10,248 nucleotides of DNA from Chloroflexota bacterium (GTDB lineage: Bacteria; Chloroflexota; Anaerolineae; Ardenticatenales; Ardenticatenaceae): the NCBI GenBank assembly GCA_003520455.1, contig DOUV01000028.1:1-10248 (forward strand), written 5' to 3'. Both the position numbers and the translations under genes were made by a program. The notes below the pieces were generated by a model, which saw only the letters and a program-made list of their open reading frames with translations, was not told where the DNA came from and did not search any database. Shown here in pieces: positions 1 to 4,427 of this stretch; within the stretch, counting starts at the first letter, position 1; each line of letters begins with the position of its first letter.

Positions 1-269
1 TTGACGAACACGTTGTAGGTGGTCTCGAAGGAAGCGCCCTGCATGGCGGAAGCGGCCATCAAGCCGGGCGCGATGTATTCGATGTACGAAAGGCCGTTGA
101 CCCCGCGCCCCACGAACATGCCCAGCCCCAGCCCCATGCCCAGCAGGTAAAGCACCGGGTCAAAGAAGTTGGGCAGGATGTTGGTCATCCAGGTGTGGCC
201 ATACTCGGTAAGATTCCGCCGCCAGACGGATACGGCCGTAGTAAGGCTGATGTCACCGGGAAGCTTCAT
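1..269 (-). CDS. ABC-2 type transporter permease, N-terminal part (runs off the left edge)
   Basis: This is the membrane subunit of an ABC-2 family exporter, working with the ATPase encoded just upstream. Only the first 89 codons are present. The protein begins [20 protein letters not shown]; the stretch after it, [20 protein letters not shown], is the usual cytoplasmic N-terminus followed by the first membrane helix ([15 protein letters not shown], about residues 45-60). Next comes [20 protein letters not shown], a segment typical of NodJ/DrrB-like permeases. The ATG at 267-269 is preceded by GGAGG (279-283) at 9 nt, which supports this start. It lies 121 bp after the ATPase stop on the same strand, so the two are very probably one operon. 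The family is clear; the substrate cannot be read from this fragment. Confidence 0.88.
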
Positions 270-300
270 GCGGCGCGGCCTCCAGACGAACAGCGAATAA

Positions 301-373
301 CCAATAACCAATTTTCAATTACCAATTCACATGCAGCAGCCGCCTCAATTGGAAATTGGTAATTGGTTATTGG
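301..373. repeat. AT-rich inverted repeat between ATPase and permease genes
   Basis: Two 27-bp arms (301-327 and 347-373) are inverted copies matching at 24 of 27 positions, around a 19-bp GC-richer loop (328-346). Each arm is itself built from the word ATTGGT/ATTGGTAA repeated about three times (for example ATTGGTAATTGGTTATTGG in 355-373). Its base composition is strikingly lower in GC than its surroundings. Read as protein, such DNA gives ITNYQ-type strings, which recur as spurious peptides in Chloroflexota and cyanobacterial genomes. It is probably a dispersed intergenic repeat. In the mRNA it would form a long hairpin between two cistrons of one operon. Function is unknown. Confidence 0.75.
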
Positions 374-390
374 TAATCTGCCGTCGCCGT

Positions 391-1422
391 TCATTCCGCC
401 AACCCTCGGCCTGTGATCTTTAGAAACACGTCTTCCAGTGTGCTGCGGCGGATCAGGGTTTCGGCGTCGGGCAGCAGGTGCGCGGCCTTGGCCACTACCT
501 CTTCGCCGTTGTCTACATATAGAAGCAGGCGGTCCTGATGACGCTCGTGGCGTTTGGCGAGGGCGGTCAATTCTGCCAGTTCCGGCCGCTCGCTTACGCT
601 TCGCGCTCCATTCGCGATGTCGACTTCCACCACGTGGCTGCTGACGTGCTGCTTGATCAGATCGCGCGGCCGGCCTTCGGCCACGATCTTGCCCTTGTCC
701 ATGATCACCAGCCGATCGCACAGCTGCTCGGCCTCGTCCATGTAGTGGGTCGTCAGGACCAGCGTCACGCCGCGTTGCTTGAGGCGATACAGGCGATCCC
801 ACAGCAGGTGCCGGGCCTGGGGATCGAGCCCGGTCGTCGGCTCGTCGAGCAGAAGCAGGACAGGCTGAGTGAGAAAGGCTCGGGCGATAGCAACTTTTTG
901 CTGCATGCCGCGGCTCATCTCCTCCATCGGCTCCGTAACCGCTTCGCGCTCGATGCCGAGCCGCTGCAGGATCTCGAAGGTTTGCCGGCGGGCTGCGACT
1001 GGGTCCACACCGTAGAGTCGCGCGGCGTACATCAGATTCTCCAACGGCGAGAGCTTCTTGAAGAAAGCGGCGTCGACACTGACTCGGTTCAAGAGGCGCT
1101 TGACAGTGCGCTCGTCTGCCAACACGTCGTAGCCAAAGACAGTGATCGTGCCACTGTCGGGAATCAGCAAGGTGGAGAGCAACCGCACGAGGGTGCTTTT
1201 CCCACCACCGTTCGGGCCAAGAATACCGAAGATCTCGCGCCGGTGAACCTCAAAGCTGACATCATCTACGGCGCGGATGCTGCGCTTCTTGTGCTGCACA
1301 ACACCATTCGCGCCGGTGAGGCGCTGCCAAAGCCGGCCCGCTTTTTCCTCCACACCGAAGGTTTTGACGGCGTGGCGGACGCTGACAGCAGGCAAACTGG
1401 GATCGAATTGTACGGGAATCAT
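391..1422 (-). CDS. ABC transporter ATP-binding protein (drug/lipid exporter, DrrA/CcmA-like)
   Basis: This 343-aa ATPase subunit powers an ABC-2 exporter at the inner face of the membrane. Visible motifs are Walker A GPNGGGKST (residues 69-77), signature MSRGMQQKV (169-177), Walker B LLLLDEPTTGLD (189-200) and H-loop TTHYMDE with His226. The C-terminal end STLEDVFLKITGR is the usual tail of DrrA-type subunits. An N-terminal extension of about 50 residues before the core fold includes a basic stretch. The usual Q-loop glutamine is not found in its expected region (LNRVSVDAAFFKKLSPLEN, 111-129). The ATG is 6 nt downstream of AGGAGG (1429-1434). Transcription appears controlled by an upstream leader ORF and terminator; the permease follows. 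Function as an exporter ATPase is secure, the substrate is not. Confidence 0.95.
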   Translation of the reverse strand: MIPVQFDPSLPAVSVRHAVKTFGVEEKAGRLWQRLTGANGVVQHKKRSIRAVDDVSFEVHRREIFGILGPNGGGKSTLVRLLSTLLIPDSGTITVFGYDVLADERTVKRLLNRVSVDAAFFKKLSPLENLMYAARLYGVDPVAARRQTFEILQRLGIEREAVTEPMEEMSRGMQQKVAIARAFLTQPVLLLLDEPTTGLDPQARHLLWDRLYRLKQRGVTLVLTTHYMDEAEQLCDRLVIMDKGKIVAEGRPRDLIKQHVSSHVVEVDIANGARSVSERPELAELTALAKRHERHQDRLLLYVDNGEEVVAKAAHLLPDAETLIRRSTLEDVFLKITGRGLAE

Positions 1423-1467: not shown

Positions 1468-1563
1468 CCCGCCCAACAAAAAAGCTGTGGGCGGGGAACC
1501 ACCCACAGCGCGATCGGTCTTCGTGATACTGTGGGTGGTGCACGGGAGTGGCGCCGCCCACAG
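1468..1563 (-). promoter_or_regulatory. Candidate transcription attenuator with alternative stems in the ABC operon leader
   Basis: On the minus strand five mutually complementary segments follow the leader ORF: A CTGTGGGCGG (1563-1554), B CCACCCACAG (1538-1529), C CTGTGGGTGG (1508-1499), D CCGCCCACAG (1494-1485) and E TGGGCGGG (1475-1468). C pairs with D to make the terminator. B pairs with C over 11 perfect bases (1539-1529 with 1508-1498), which would prevent the terminator. A can pair with B (one mismatch) or perfectly with D. E can pair with CCCGCCCA overlapping D. This is the layout of a ribosome-controlled attenuator: a ribosome held on the leader ORF, which ends 11 nt before A, would mask A, free B and favour read-through. 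The pairing is seen; the mechanism is inferred. Confidence 0.7.
1478..1508 (-). terminator. Intrinsic terminator upstream of the ABC ATPase gene
   Basis: On the minus strand a 10-bp stem (CTGTGGGTGG with CCGCCCACAG, one G-U pair) closes a UUCC tetraloop and is followed by C and then six U. It lies 55 nt before the ATPase start and after the leader ORF, so it would stop transcripts before the structural genes unless an antiterminator forms. Confidence 0.85.
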
Positions 1564-1574
1564 CAGAGAGGATG

Positions 1575-1694
1575 TCAGACGATCAATCTCTCCGGGCCGC
1601 GGCGCAGACGACCACCAGGCAGACCAAGGCCGTAACCGGCTCCAAGCGGCCGGCGAACCTCGATATAGCCAAAGCGGATTCGGGTAAAGCGCAT
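1575..1694 (-). CDS. Putative 39-aa leader peptide of the ABC exporter operon
   Basis: This small ORF sits between the promoter and the terminator of the exporter operon. Its ATG (1692-1694) is preceded by GGAGG at 10 nt. The product is basic and glycine-rich, starting MRFTRIRFGYIEVRR, then LGAGYGLGLPGG, and ending RGPERLIV. No signal peptide or membrane segment is seen. The stop codon (1575-1577) lies 11 nt before the first strand of the attenuator, a spacing that lets a stalled or terminating ribosome cover that strand. Leader peptides of this kind upstream of antibiotic-resistance transporters are established in other bacteria. Here the role is inferred from layout; I do not recognise the peptide as a named family. 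Whether it is translated is untested. Confidence 0.6.
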   Translation of the reverse strand: MRFTRIRFGYIEVRRPLGAGYGLGLPGGRLRRGPERLIV

Positions 1695-1735
1695 GCTTGT
1701 GCGACCTCCAAAGGAAACCGTGGAATTGTAAGCGC

Positions 1736-1765
1736 AGTATATCAGAGGTCGAGGGTCACTGTCAA
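1736..1765 (-). promoter_or_regulatory. Sigma-70-type promoter of the leader-ABC exporter operon
   Basis: On the minus strand TTGACA (1765-1760) is followed by an 18-bp spacer and TATACT (1741-1736). Transcription should start near 1729, giving a 5' leader of about 300 nt before the ATPase start. The -35 box lies only 19 bp from the edge of the insertion sequence and is untouched by it. Confidence 0.82.
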
Positions 1766-1784: not shown

Positions 1785-1800
1785 TAGGGCAATCGCATCT
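1785..1800 (+). repeat. Terminal inverted repeat, left end of the IS
   Basis: This 16-bp end is an exact inverted copy of 3061-3076. Similarity stops directly after it. The last base is also the end of the transposase stop codon. Confidence 0.93.
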
Positions 1801-3005
1801 TATTTGGCCTTTCCTGCGGTGAGGACTTTGAGCAGGTAATCGGGGTCCCAGCCAGCGCGGAGGCGCTTGTTCTTGACGCCGAGCTTGGCGGAGCGCTCAT
1901 GTTTCAAGAGATTGAGGGCGATATGGCGCAGGATCGCCAAGTTGTGCGGGGCATGATCTTTGCGCACGCGGGAGTGATCCTCGCCACAAGCCACATCGAG
2001 GACCCAGTGCCGGCGGTTTTCAATGCCCCAATGGCCGCGGACCGCCGCCAAGAGGCGGGCGGCATCGTGCGGCAGGCTGGCGATGAAGAAGCGCGTTTCA
2101 ACGGTGGTCTCTTGGCCGACGGTCCGTTCCGCCTCAACCTTGACCACGGTGTGAAGCTGGGGCCACTGGTCGCGATCCCGGAGAGAGAAGAGAAAGTCAG
2201 GATCGGCGATGGCCCAGCAGCGCCGTTTCTCAAAGCGTCCATGCCCGCGGGAGAAGGTTTCGTGGAAGTCGGACACGACCGGTTGAAAGTTGATCACCTC
2301 GGCGTAGGCAAACAGGTCGGTCAGTTCCTGGAAGAGCTGGCCCTGGTTCGCCTTGACGGCCAAGACATAGTCCGCCCCGCCGTCCACGATCTGCTGGGCA
2401 ATCGCCTTTTGGCAGCCCATCGCATCCACCGTGACGATGCACCCGCTGATGTCCAGCAACTTCAGCAGGGCTGGGATCGCCGGAATCTCATTCGACTTTT
2501 CGTCAACCTTGACCTGGCCGAGCACCAGTTGGTTCTCCGTGGCCCAGGCACTCACCATCTGAATCGCCCCCTTCCCGGCGGCATGATCGTACGAGCCTCG
2601 CACTTGTTTGCCATCCACGGCGATGACTTGGCCGTCGGTCACTTCACCCCGCGGGGTGCCCCCAAGCGAGATCGTCTCGTAGGGGTATCCCCCGTAGGGG
2701 ACAAACACCGCCTGCACCCAGGAGAGAAAGCAGCTCTGGAACTGCTCCGGATCAAGCCGACTGAAGACCCGCCCGAAGGTGTCATGCGACGGAATCCCGT
2801 TGGACAATTCCAAGAACTCTGCCAGCCATTCGCGCTTGGCGTTCCCGAACGCTTCTATCGAGACCCAATCATCCGCCCCACAAATCGCCCCGCAGATGGC
2901 AATCACCACAATGTCGATGAGTTTGTGCCGCTTCGTGCGGTCGATCCGCGGATCTTCCAACGATCCGAAGTGCTCAATCAGCCCCGCGCTCGTCTGGCTT
3001 TCCAT
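1800..3005 (-). CDS. ISAs1-family transposase, full length
   Basis: The 401-aa DDE transposase cuts and joins the ends of the surrounding insertion sequence. The N-terminal part (HFGSLEDPRIDRTKRHKLID, residues 12-31; DDWVSIEAFG, 45-54) is typical of ISAs1 / H-repeat-associated proteins. The catalytic residues are visible as D131 in VIAVDGKQVRGS, D194 in VTVDAMGCQK and E329 in HWGIENRRHWVLDV. Its length is normal for the family and no frameshift or stop interrupts it. The ATG at 3003-3005 is preceded by AGGAG at 7 nt. Transcription runs toward the exporter operon, but any read-through would meet that operon's leader terminator. Confidence 0.96.
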   Translation of the reverse strand: MESQTSAGLIEHFGSLEDPRIDRTKRHKLIDIVVIAICGAICGADDWVSIEAFGNAKREWLAEFLELSNGIPSHDTFGRVFSRLDPEQFQSCFLSWVQAVFVPYGGYPYETISLGGTPRGEVTDGQVIAVDGKQVRGSYDHAAGKGAIQMVSAWATENQLVLGQVKVDEKSNEIPAIPALLKLLDISGCIVTVDAMGCQKAIAQQIVDGGADYVLAVKANQGQLFQELTDLFAYAEVINFQPVVSDFHETFSRGHGRFEKRRCWAIADPDFLFSLRDRDQWPQLHTVVKVEAERTVGQETTVETRFFIASLPHDAARLLAAVRGHWGIENRRHWVLDVACGEDHSRVRKDHAPHNLAILRHIALNLLKHERSAKLGVKNKRLRAGWDPDYLLKVLTAGKAK

Positions 3006-3060
3006 CGATGGGCTCCTCTCCTTGCTCTGGCTGGAGCCCTATCTTACCCGACTCCCATTT

Positions 3061-3076
3061 AGATGCGATTGCCCTA
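3061..3076 (-). repeat. Terminal inverted repeat, right end of the IS
   Basis: AGATGCGATTGCCCTA is the exact inverted copy of the left end at 1785-1800. It is the end upstream of the transposase gene. Confidence 0.93.
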
Positions 3077-3086
3077 GACAGTCGAG
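3077..3086. repeat. Target site duplication, right copy
   Basis: GACAGTCGAG is identical to 1775-1784. It is followed by ACAGTCGAC, so the original target already held a short near-tandem repeat of ACAGTCGA. Confidence 0.93.
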
Positions 3087-3212: not shown

Positions 3213-3241
3213 TTGACACCAGAATATATGTTCTATATACT
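3213..3241 (+). promoter_or_regulatory. Near-consensus sigma-70-type promoter of the FtsK-like operon
   Basis: TTGACA (3213-3218), a 17-bp spacer and TATACT (3236-3241) give a nearly ideal promoter reading right. Transcription should start near 3248, about 40 nt before the small ORF and 115 nt before the FtsK-like start. The AT-rich spacer stands out from the GC-rich surroundings. From the end of the IS (3087) to here I see no gene. Confidence 0.82.
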
Positions 3242-3289: not shown

Positions 3290-3370
3290 ATGAGCCTCAG
3301 ACAACATGTTGCTTCGCGGTGGGGTACCGCCCGTGGCCCGCTCGAAAGCGACGGCCAGAGGCATGGTTGA
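3290..3370 (+). CDS. Small 26-aa ORF overlapping the FtsK-like start
   Basis: This is the first ORF after the promoter. The ATG at 3290 has GGGAG about 5 nt upstream, a better ribosome binding site than either candidate start of the next gene. The product begins MSLRQHVASRWGTARG. Its stop overlaps the FtsK-like ATG in the string ATGGTTGA, so translation of the next gene may be coupled to it. It could be a leader or coupling ORF. It could also be the true N-terminus of the next gene displaced by a frameshift. No family is recognised. Confidence 0.4.
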   Translation: MSLRQHVASRWGTARGPLESDGQRHG

Positions 3371-4427
3371 ACTCCACGCCGATGCTGATCAGATCGAAGC
3401 GATCTTGCGTCACTACCAGGTGGATGCGCGCATCGATGGTGGTCTGCTCGGCCCAAATGTAATCCGCTTTCACCTGCGGCTGAACGGTCGCTCGGAGGCG
3501 ACGCTGGCTTGCATTGATGCGCTCACGCCCGAAATCGCCCGCGCGCTCGGTCGTCCCAGTTGCCGGTTGCGAACGCGGGACGGCGTGGTCTTTCTAGAAG
3601 TGCCGCGCCTCCCTCCGCCGGCCAATGCGTTGTTGTTCGGCGATCTGAGTGCGCGGGCCGGCGAGCCTCCCGCAGATACGGCTATTTTGGGCCTCATCGG
3701 TGATGGCCGTCCGCTCCTCTGGCGGCTCAGTAATCCGGCTATATCCCATGTACTGGTCTACGGCGCTCAGGGTTGTGGCAAGACGACGCTGCTCCAGGCT
3801 CTGGCGTTGAGTCTGGCGCAGGTTCAACCGGCCCGCCGGTGGCGGTTGGTGCTGCTCGGCACTCGTGATGAGTTCGCTTCGCTCGCAGCACTTCCCCATA
3901 CCTGGGGCCACAGCACCAGCCGGGAGGCCGCCATCGGCTGGCTCGTCCGCCTGACAACAGAGCTGGAGCGGCGGCTCGCAGAGCGGCAGGGTCATCCTAC
4001 GATAGAGCCGCTGCCCCGCGTCCTCGTTCTGGTGGATGAAGCAGCGAGCCTGGCGGCCCTCGGAGGTGTGACGGTGCGGGTCGCTCTGGCAAGGCTCCTG
4101 GCGCAAGGACCCGACGCTGGACTACACGTCGCCGCTGCCACCGCCGAGCCTGACGCATTGGGACATCTGGTCCCGGCCTTCCCGCTTCGTGTGGTTGGTC
4201 AGTCACCGAGTTCAGTCGACTGGAAGTGCGGCCAGTTCAGTACAGTGGCTGATGGGGTCGAGCCAGTTCGTTTTCGAGCGGCGTGGGTCTCCCCGCGCGA
4301 TGTTGCACTGACGATCGCTCGGTGGCAGCGACGGCGCCCACGTGTGGCCGCCAGAGAAGTGGCCGAGAGCGAATCTCAGTTGGTTCCCGAGATGATTTTG
4401 TCAAGGAGGGTACGGTGCAGGGCGTGA
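3363..4427 (+). CDS. Single-domain FtsK/SpoIIIE-type DNA translocase motor
   Basis: This 354-aa soluble P-loop ATPase is of the HerA/FtsK superfamily. Residues about 1-82 match the FtsK alpha domain (ADQIEAILRHYQVDARI, then GPNVIRFHLRLNG, later DGVVFLEVPR). A RecA-like motor follows with Walker A GAQGCGKT (134-141) after PAISHVLVY, Walker B VLVLVDEAASL (D225, E226) and a sensor-like segment HVAAATAEPD. There are no membrane helices and no C-terminal gamma winged helix, so it is not the cell-division FtsK. Such short motors are typical of integrative elements and plasmids, where they move or deliver DNA. I chose ATG 3363 because the alpha domain begins there and the ORF before it overlaps. An in-frame ATG at 3306 would add 19 residues but has no ribosome binding site. 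Its stop overlaps the next gene by 13 bp. Confidence 0.82.
   Translation: MVELHADADQIEAILRHYQVDARIDGGLLGPNVIRFHLRLNGRSEATLACIDALTPEIARALGRPSCRLRTRDGVVFLEVPRLPPPANALLFGDLSARAGEPPADTAILGLIGDGRPLLWRLSNPAISHVLVYGAQGCGKTTLLQALALSLAQVQPARRWRLVLLGTRDEFASLAALPHTWGHSTSREAAIGWLVRLTTELERRLAERQGHPTIEPLPRVLVLVDEAASLAALGGVTVRVALARLLAQGPDAGLHVAAATAEPDALGHLVPAFPLRVVGQSPSSVDWKCGQFSTVADGVEPVRFRAAWVSPRDVALTIARWQRRRPRVAAREVAESESQLVPEMILSRRVRCRA

What the first reader, a model, noticed from the sequence alone, without database searches (positions are those of the whole stretch)
1468..1765. Leader-peptide attenuator controlling an ABC exporter operon
Seen directly: TTGACA-18-TATACT promoter, an SD-preceded 39-codon ORF, then strands A, B, C, D and E that can form either an 11-bp antiterminator (B-C) or a terminator (C-D) with six U, then the SD and ATG of the ATPase. 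Ribosome-mediated attenuation of antibiotic-resistance genes is established in other bacteria. Here the same logic would let a ribosome-targeting compound stall on the leader and switch on the exporter. The leader begins MRFTRIRFGYIEV and I do not know it as a described family.
Basis: partly seen in the sequence, partly recalled or inferred. Interest (0 to 1): 0.8.

Follow-up and report, generated by a model that had tools for sequence, protein, structure and literature searches.

The report
Drug-sensing RNA switch before exporter gene
A short decoy gene and folding RNA ahead of a bacterial pump gene look like a switch that turns the pump on when a macrolide-type antibiotic stalls ribosomes, and the same kind of switch recurs across the little-studied phylum Chloroflexota, apparently in front of several kinds of drug-defence gene.

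Summary
Upstream of related ATPases in Chloroflexota the same order recurs: promoter, SD, short ORF, terminator(s), ATPase. A rule blind to peptide content accepts 67 of 162 loci. A model built without the window finds the window's leader (21.8 bits, E 4e-5).

The leaders share Arg-X-Arg, the macrolide/ketolide arrest motif: 33 of 55 against 11.4 in shuffles; RR and R..R are not enriched. Similar switches precede other genes (MsbA-like exporters, acetyltransferases, an ABC-F protein); only 3 of 31 such leaders carry Arg-X-Arg. I read this as the macrolide-type member of a family with one shared switch and different sensing peptides.

Caveats: no experiment. Window bases 1-750 are identical to a Planctomycetota genome, so the contig is a chimera, probably an assembly error; the leader is on the Chloroflexota side. 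The window's copy is unusual (first hairpin without U-tract, stop codon far from the arm) and its switching must be kinetic. The mechanism is of the known erm(K)/mef/hflXr type: a new variant.

The parts
1760..1765 (-). -35 hexamer TTGACA
   Evidence: a promoter of at least 9 of 12 lies within 110 nt upstream of 50 of 63 family leaders, shuffles 2.4
1736..1741 (-). -10 hexamer TATACT
1704..1709 (-). Shine-Dalgarno of the leader ORF (GGAGGT)
1575..1694 (-). leader ORF, 39 codons, MRFTRIRFGYIEV...ERLIV
1674..1682 (-). Arg-Ile-Arg (codons 5-7), predicted macrolide-dependent arrest motif
   Evidence: sequence; R-X-R enrichment in the family
1596..1616 (-). arm '0': 5' arm of the antiterminator inside the ORF, with the TGCGCC core common in relatives
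1554..1564 (-). strand A: pairs with 0, B or D
1529..1538 (-). strand B: pairs with A or C; hairpin A:B has no U-tract
1499..1509 (-). strand C: pairs with B (antiterminator) or D (terminator)
1478..1494 (-). strand D plus U6: 3' half of the intrinsic terminator
1476..1631 (-). match to covariance model R1, built from 41 relatives without the window
   Evidence: 21.8 bits, E 4e-5 for the window alone
391..1422 (-). ABC ATPase ORF; residues 1 to about 224 Chloroflexota-like (residues 1-248: 89% to P0002), rest Planctomycetota (chimera)
1..269 (-). start of the downstream gene, read by eye as an ABC-2-type permease, cut by the window end; planctomycete DNA
   Evidence: sequence; identical to L001; no family scan was run on it

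Best explanation
The region is a ribosome-mediated transcription attenuator that senses a macrolide/ketolide-type drug. Without drug, a ribosome translates the leader ORF and covers arm 0 while RNA polymerase makes A to D; A then pairs with B or D, D ends up in a stem in front of the U-tract, and transcription stops before the ATPase. With drug, the ribosome is arrested at Arg-Ile-Arg (codons 5-7); arm 0 is free and captures A, B is released and captures C, D stays unpaired, and polymerase reads through into the exporter gene. It belongs to a Chloroflexota family in which this switch, with one or two terminators, precedes related ABC ATPases and, with other leader peptides, other defence-type genes. 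Shown by computation: architecture, conservation, covariation, R-X-R enrichment. Inferred: drug arrest, read-through, exporter function.
For: Same order in 67 of 162 loci by a peptide-blind rule. ORF arm against T1 5' half: native -21.7 against permuted -18.9 +- 0.33 kcal/mol, z -8.5, 0 of 5000, n 68; the window's -28.5 is fourth strongest. Antiterminator pairs in 85.2% of cells against 81.1 +- 1.0 shuffled (0 of 500), slid at most 56.4. T1 stem 96.7% against 92.4 +- 0.6, 5 of 9 pairs change on both sides. T1 3' arm against T2 5' arm (B:C) z -8.0, n 32. R-X-R in the N-part of 33 of 55 leaders (window included) against 11.4 +- 2.5, z 8.5; RR 10 against 12.0; R..R 8 against 10.8; other SD-preceded ORFs 21 of 150 against 25.3. 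New leaders: 6 of 9 against 1.7. All six Arg codons occur in R-X-R. Promoter in 50 of 63 against 2.4. Window found by R1. Stepwise folding of the window: 0:A plus B:C in the stalled state while polymerase is at 1499-1487; A:D or C:D at the stop codon. Arrest at Arg-Leu-Arg by erythromycin and telithromycin: PMC8298421 (passages).
Against: No expression or drug data. 95 of 162 loci fail the rule (49 no terminator, 46 terminator without ORF). 22 of 55 leaders lack R-X-R. No synonymous excess in leader peptides. For the antiterminator, the number of pairs with both-sided change does not exceed shuffles (5 against 4.3, 218 of 500). In the window arm 0 ends about 20 nt before the ORF end, so a terminating ribosome would barely cover it; A:B lacks a U-tract; R-I-R lies 34 codons from the end (mode about 20). 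Even in the stalled state A:B is favoured while B but not C is out (3' end 1515-1505), and the terminator wins once D is complete; if the ribosome stands 6 codons further on, the antiterminator leads only at 1499. So the switch must be kinetic. Equilibrium folding flips 17 of 67 family loci (0 with a shuffled arm). The window's 21.8 bits would not pass the cut used for genomes (lowest listed 25.5 bits).
Confidence: 0.7

Rival explanations
1. A leader-peptide attenuator that senses something other than macrolides: another ribosome inhibitor or general translation slowing.
For: 22 of 55 leaders have no R-X-R. Similar switches before other genes mostly lack it (3 of 31 have it) and must sense something else. 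bmrBCD responds most strongly to lincomycin (PMC4191407, passages).
Against: R-X-R spacing is specific (RR, R..R and R...R not enriched), absent as a signal in decoy ORFs and tied to the DrrA-type gene (Fisher p 3.5e-6).
Confidence: 0.2
2. An arginine-starvation attenuator of the trp/his kind, with Arg codons as sensor.
For: Leaders are slightly Arg-richer than decoys (13% against 11%).
Against: Runs of Arg are not enriched (RR 10 against 12.0); only R-X-R is. No arginine gene was seen among the downstream genes that were scanned.
Confidence: 0.03
3. Two ordinary tandem terminators of an upstream transcript; alternative pairings are a by-product of stem duplication and the ORF is chance.
For: B:C complementarity could come from hairpin duplication. 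95 of 162 loci do not fit the rule.
Against: Dedicated promoter and SD in front; T1 5' half and ORF arm covary; R-X-R; the exact stem pattern is rare in 15 genomes (6 matches, 4 of them at ATPase leaders).
Confidence: 0.05
4. In this contig the element is non-functional, a decayed or mis-assembled copy, although the family is real (not exclusive of the best explanation for the family).
For: Chimeric contig; A:B without U-tract; long ORF tail; IS inserted just upstream; weak model score.
Against: Promoter, SD, R-I-R, arm 0, A:D, B:C and C:D are intact, the 0:A duplex is the fourth strongest of 68, and the leader lies over 700 nt from the junction.
Confidence: 0.15

Closest known systems
erm(K)/erm(D) and mef(E)/mel attenuators (MTHSMRLR, MTASMRLR leaders)
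   Same: R-L-R leader ORF, transcription terminator, alternative antiterminator; erm(K) also has two adjacent terminators and mef encodes efflux (PMC4335068, passages)
   Different: Those leaders have 8-14 codons; here mostly 25-40, with the antiterminator's 5' arm inside the ORF 3' end; other phylum, ABC-2-type ATPase; sequence relation not tested
hflXr (lmo0762)/rli80 of Listeria
   Same: 14-aa R-L-R leader, terminator/antiterminator switch (PMC6310831, passages)
   Different: Different gene and phylum; RNA sequences not compared
bmrBCD of Bacillus subtilis
   Same: Leader-peptide transcription attenuation of a multidrug ABC transporter (PMC4191407, passages)
   Different: The terminator lies inside the leader ORF; lincomycin was the most potent inducer
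trp-type amino-acid attenuators (recalled)
   Same: Alternating strand logic 0:A, A:B, B:C, C:D set by ribosome position
   Different: Sensor is R-X-R, not runs of cognate codons

Membership tests
Macrolide-inducible +X+ leader attenuators (erm(K), mef, hflXr kind) | Short SD-preceded ORF between promoter and gene | tested here: met
Macrolide-inducible +X+ leader attenuators (erm(K), mef, hflXr kind) | Arg/Lys-X-Arg/Lys in the leader | tested here: met
   Window R-I-R; 33 of 55 family leaders have R-X-R, 34 of 55 with Lys allowed
Macrolide-inducible +X+ leader attenuators (erm(K), mef, hflXr kind) | Intrinsic terminator before the gene and a mutually exclusive antiterminator | tested here: met
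   Computed only; at equilibrium the window's terminator wins in the states folded once D is complete
Macrolide-inducible +X+ leader attenuators (erm(K), mef, hflXr kind) | Drug-dependent arrest and induction | not testable with these tools
   needs toeprint or reporter
Macrolide-inducible +X+ leader attenuators (erm(K), mef, hflXr kind) | Regulated gene gives macrolide resistance | not testable with these tools
   ABC ATPase; substrate unknown
DrrA subfamily (TIGR01188) | Score above curated cut-off 312.45 | tested here: not met
   265.6 bits, best NCBIfam hit; the ORF is a chimera
Amino-acid (Arg) starvation attenuator | Run of cognate codons | tested here: not met
   RR 10 against 12.0 expected
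Described Rfam families | Match at the leader | tested here: not met
   none at the leader in the window or in 10 related loci, E up to 1

The most novel reading that the evidence does not exclude
Chloroflexota carry a phylum-wide regulon of modular attenuators: a constant antiterminator arm in the 3' end of the leader ORF is combined with interchangeable N-terminal sensing peptides (R-X-R for macrolides before DrrA-type ATPases, others before MsbA-like exporters, acetyltransferases, ABC-F and an rRNA-methylase-type gene). Where two terminators stand in series, one stalled ribosome opens both, because the freed 3' arm of the first captures the 5' arm of the second.
Probability: 0.45. Interest if true: 0.75.

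Novelty: new variant of a known kind. Interest (0 to 1): 0.6.

Why it matters
From recall, antibiotic-sensing leader peptides have been worked out mainly in Gram-positive and enteric model bacteria. If this family works as predicted, largely uncultured Chloroflexota sense ribosome inhibitors in nature with the same Arg-X-Arg code, and their leaders are a natural library of drug-specific arrest peptides: the peptide upstream would hint at the drug class that the gene downstream deals with. The series-terminator linkage (B:C) is a directly testable idea about how one stall can open two terminators.

Tried and rejected
Rfam: mir-791 at 309-372 (26 bits, gathering 70) is an intergenic inverted repeat, not a miRNA; the five hits in 10 relatives do not overlap leader ORF or T1. 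Conservation of the whole peptide: tblastn of the 39-aa leader against the first 80 loci found nothing convincing, and close pairs show no synonymous excess. Equilibrium folding as proof of switching: rejected for the window. A generic-terminator explanation of the CCGTGGG stem: rejected. The closest ATPase relative, P0002 (10.4-Mb contig), was sought in genome samples (with the window's ATPase, 71 with P0002); nothing above 72% identity was listed, so its upstream region was not seen. R1 in Planctomycetota: 1 of 99 genomes, a partial terminator match, against 58 of 201 Chloroflexota; both with the tool's stricter filters.

Selections to bear in mind. The ATPase query is itself chimeric, so some matches follow its planctomycete part and belong to another subfamily. 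A1/R1 used 41 of 67 leaders, picked by me as clean (Ktedonobacteria-like and long-gap ones left out). The antiterminator pairs were read from one sequence (L187) and its kin, which favours them over slid versions. Of 78 element matches I looked downstream of 50: 30 loci returned by the tool and 20 that I chose, mostly second copies away from the ATPase, so the share of non-ATPase genes is not a rate. Family scans covered 23 of the 50; the MsbA or ABC-F label of others rests on length and weak ATPase similarity, and its GNAT group includes L201, which matched no family. The 31 leaders leave out three elements with no ORF by the rule (L218, L220, L221) and three others (L217, L243, L248). In one search, 30 of 48 loci gave a leader; 12 were unlike earlier ones and 9 long enough to test.

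Full report
WHAT IS THERE. The finding lies on the minus strand. Promoter, Shine-Dalgarno, a 39-codon ORF, strands A to D and a U6 terminator are at the stated places. The leader folds better than shuffles (z -3.1). Pair counts are A:B 9 of 10, A:D 11 of 11, B:C 10 of 10, C:D 10 plus one G-U. No whole genome is held for the window and no Rfam family matches at the leader. An ISAs1-family insertion sequence (NCBIfam NF033564, 413.7 bits, cut-off 70; inverted ends 1785-1807 and 3054-3076; flanking repeat GACAGTCGAG at 1775-1784 and 3077-3086, read by eye) ends about 20 bases upstream of the -35 box and leaves the promoter intact.

THE CONTIG IS A CHIMERA. Window bases 1-750 are identical to a Planctomycetota genome (L001, JAOSKM010000003.1) in the printed alignment, and identity collapses from 751 on, inside the conserved ABC motif TTHYMDEAEQLCDRL. 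The ATPase N-terminal two-thirds is instead close to a protein of an Ardenticatenaceae (Chloroflexota) genome, P0002 (residues 1-248 89% identical), whose own C-terminus differs. An assembly join in a conserved motif is the likeliest cause; a recent recombination is not excluded. The leader lies over 700 nt from the junction on the Chloroflexota side. The ATPase ORF and the operon as printed should not be taken at face value.

CONSERVATION. Relatives of the ATPase are common in Chloroflexota: 132 of 400 genomes match at E 1e-74 (some follow the planctomycete part of the query and are another subfamily), 52 of 151 in one order at 1e-70, and 51 of 396 in one class match P0002 at 1e-98. The shared leader order was first seen by eye. 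A rule that asks only for a terminator and an SD-preceded ORF of 12-60 codons ending next to it accepts 67 of 162 non-redundant loci; 49 have no terminator and 46 a terminator without ORF. The 162 include Planctomycetota loci and likely paralogs; the window itself is not among the 67, because its first hairpin has no U-tract and its second is too far from the ORF. A promoter of at least 9 of 12 lies within 110 nt upstream of 50 of 63 leaders against 2.4 in shuffles. In 31 of the 67 a second terminator follows within 150 nt.

PAIRING. The last part of the ORF (core TGCGCC) pairs with the 5' arm and loop of the first terminator (T1). Native duplexes average -21.7 against -18.9 +- 0.33 kcal/mol when leaders and terminators are re-paired between loci (z -8.5, 0 of 5000, n 68 with the window, whose -28.5 is fourth). 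In an alignment of 41 of the 67, antiterminator pairs form in 85.2% of cells against 81.1 +- 1.0 (0 of 500) and at most 56.4 when slid; cells changed on both sides are 29 against 17.4 +- 3.8 (2 of 500), but pairs with a both-sided change are 5 against 4.3 (218 of 500). The T1 stem forms in 96.7% against 92.4 +- 0.6, with both-sided changes at 5 of 9 pairs against 2.4 (4 of 500). The 3' arm of T1 also matches the 5' arm of T2 (B:C) better than re-paired ones (-19.6 against -15.7 +- 0.49, z -8.0, n 32). Relatedness of the sequences and tandem duplication can contribute to both. The stem is not a generic terminator: the pattern CCGTGGG..CCCACGGNTTTT has 6 matches in 15 genomes, 4 of them at ATPase leaders.

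THE SENSOR. Leaving off the last 12 residues, 33 of 55 non-redundant leaders (window included) contain Arg-X-Arg against 11.4 +- 2.5 in shuffles (z 8.5). RR (10 against 12.0), R..R (8 against 10.8) and R...R (9 against 10.3) are not enriched; 150 decoy ORFs show no excess (21 against 25.3). The last 12 residues show none either (14 of 58 against 11.6). The motif starts typically about 20 codons from the ORF end. Nine new leaders gave 6 against 1.7. All six Arg codons are used in these motifs (44 leaders), which points to the peptide rather than the RNA. Arg-X-Arg is an established arrest motif of ketolides and of erythromycin (PMC8298421, passages) and is called a hallmark of macrolide-sensing attenuators (PMC6310831, passages). 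Against: 22 of 55 lack it, and whole peptides are unconstrained (N-parts of 7 close pairs: 11 synonymous, 41 non-synonymous, 13.0 synonymous expected).

A WIDER FAMILY. Covariance model R1 (41 leaders, window not included) hits the window at 1631-1476 (21.8 bits, E 4e-5 for the window alone; pairing A with D), a weaker score than any counted in the Chloroflexota genomes. It hits 58 of 201 Chloroflexota genomes at E 1e-3, 78 matches, 17 genomes with two or three, but 1 of 99 Planctomycetota, partially. Of 50 matches examined, 13 stand before an ATPase scoring over 200 bits against the window's. Family scans of 23 of the others gave MsbA-like ABC exporters (L212, L231, L233), GNAT acetyltransferases (L202, L210, L211, L213, L242, L246), ABC-F ribosome-protection proteins (L238 419 bits, cut-off 380; L218, cut by the locus end, 334.9), APH-like kinases (L221, L236), a SpoU rRNA methylase (L230), RsgA GTPases (L208, L244, L247), a tyrosyl-tRNA synthetase (L245), an ABC-2 permease (L216), two further ABC ATPases (L217, L243), and no family for L201 and L225 (L225 scanned against Pfam only). 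Of 36 elements not before a close DrrA-type ATPase, 27 have a promoter within 150 nt upstream against 2.5. Their leaders often end in ..SRSAP.., but only 3 of 31 have Arg-X-Arg (Fisher p 3.5e-6 against 33 of 55). Solved relatives of one acetyltransferase (L213) include aminoglycoside 6'-acetyltransferases (E 4e-10); one APH-like protein (L221) is nearest homoserine kinase; L231 is nearest P-glycoprotein-type ABCB transporters. Drug inactivation or export by these is not shown.

HOW THE WINDOW'S COPY WOULD WORK. Folding stepwise with the ribosome stalled at R-I-R: 0:A forms first; while B but not yet C is out, A:B is favoured; when polymerase has made C (1499, and until about 1487), 0:A and B:C dominate and D is free. 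With the ribosome at the stop codon, A:B forms first, then A:D enclosing B:C, or C:D; either way D sits in a stem before the U-tract. When D is complete the stalled-state equilibrium also prefers the terminator, and with the ribosome 6 codons further on the antiterminator leads only at 1499, so the switch depends on order and speed. Two oddities: arm 0 ends about 20 nt before the ORF end, so a terminating ribosome would barely mask it, and A:B has no U-tract. Across the family, equilibrium folding brings T1 below one half in 17 of 67 loci in the stalled state, and in none with a shuffled arm (mean 0.74 against 0.99, Wilcoxon p 2e-5).

PRIOR WORK. The logic is that of erm(K), mef(E)/mel, hflXr and bmrBCD (PMC4335068, PMC6310831, PMC4191407; passages). 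I found no report of this family: searches joining Chloroflexi or Chloroflexota with leader peptide, macrolide, attenuation, attenuator, ribosome stalling, antitermination, transcription attenuation or structured RNAs listed nothing on it; for only the top rows were shown. A survey of premature terminators (PMC2965389) does not contain the word stem Chloroflex in the text held; a cis-regulatory RNA survey with Chloroflexi (PMC3766115) does not contain 'leader peptide'; an erm-leader study (PMC11264731) names Chloroflexota once, in a legend on erm phylogeny. The library holds open-licence papers only.

Noticed in passing
window 1-750: Identical over 750 bases to Planctomycetota MAG L001, then abrupt divergence: chimeric contig or very recent recombination.
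   Followed up: partly
window 1785-3076: ISAs1-family insertion sequence with imperfect inverted ends and flanking repeat GACAGTCGAG (by eye), inserted just upstream of the leader promoter.
   Followed up: partly
window 301-376: Long inverted repeat (ACCAATAACCAATTTTCAATTACCAATT...) between ATPase and next gene, on the planctomycete side; gives a spurious miRNA hit.
   Followed up: no
window 3213-3241 +: A second TTGACA-17-TATACT promoter (11 of 12) pointing at an FtsK/SpoIIIE-like gene (3306-4427).
   Followed up: no
L208, L244, L247: R1 matches ahead of RsgA ribosome-biogenesis GTPase genes; the link to this switch is unclear (in L208 and L244 the ORF begins 365 and 887 nt downstream).
   Followed up: partly
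L281, L289, L292: A 17-codon leader variant (for example MVYYNLIGGLKGVFTLP) without R-X-R before the same ATPase, perhaps another sensor.
   Followed up: no
L066, L067, L069, L293, L294: Terminator stems changed to GCCACGGG/CCCGTGGC or similar; in L066, L067 and L069 both terminators carry the change and T1 3' arm still pairs with T2 5' arm.
   Followed up: partly
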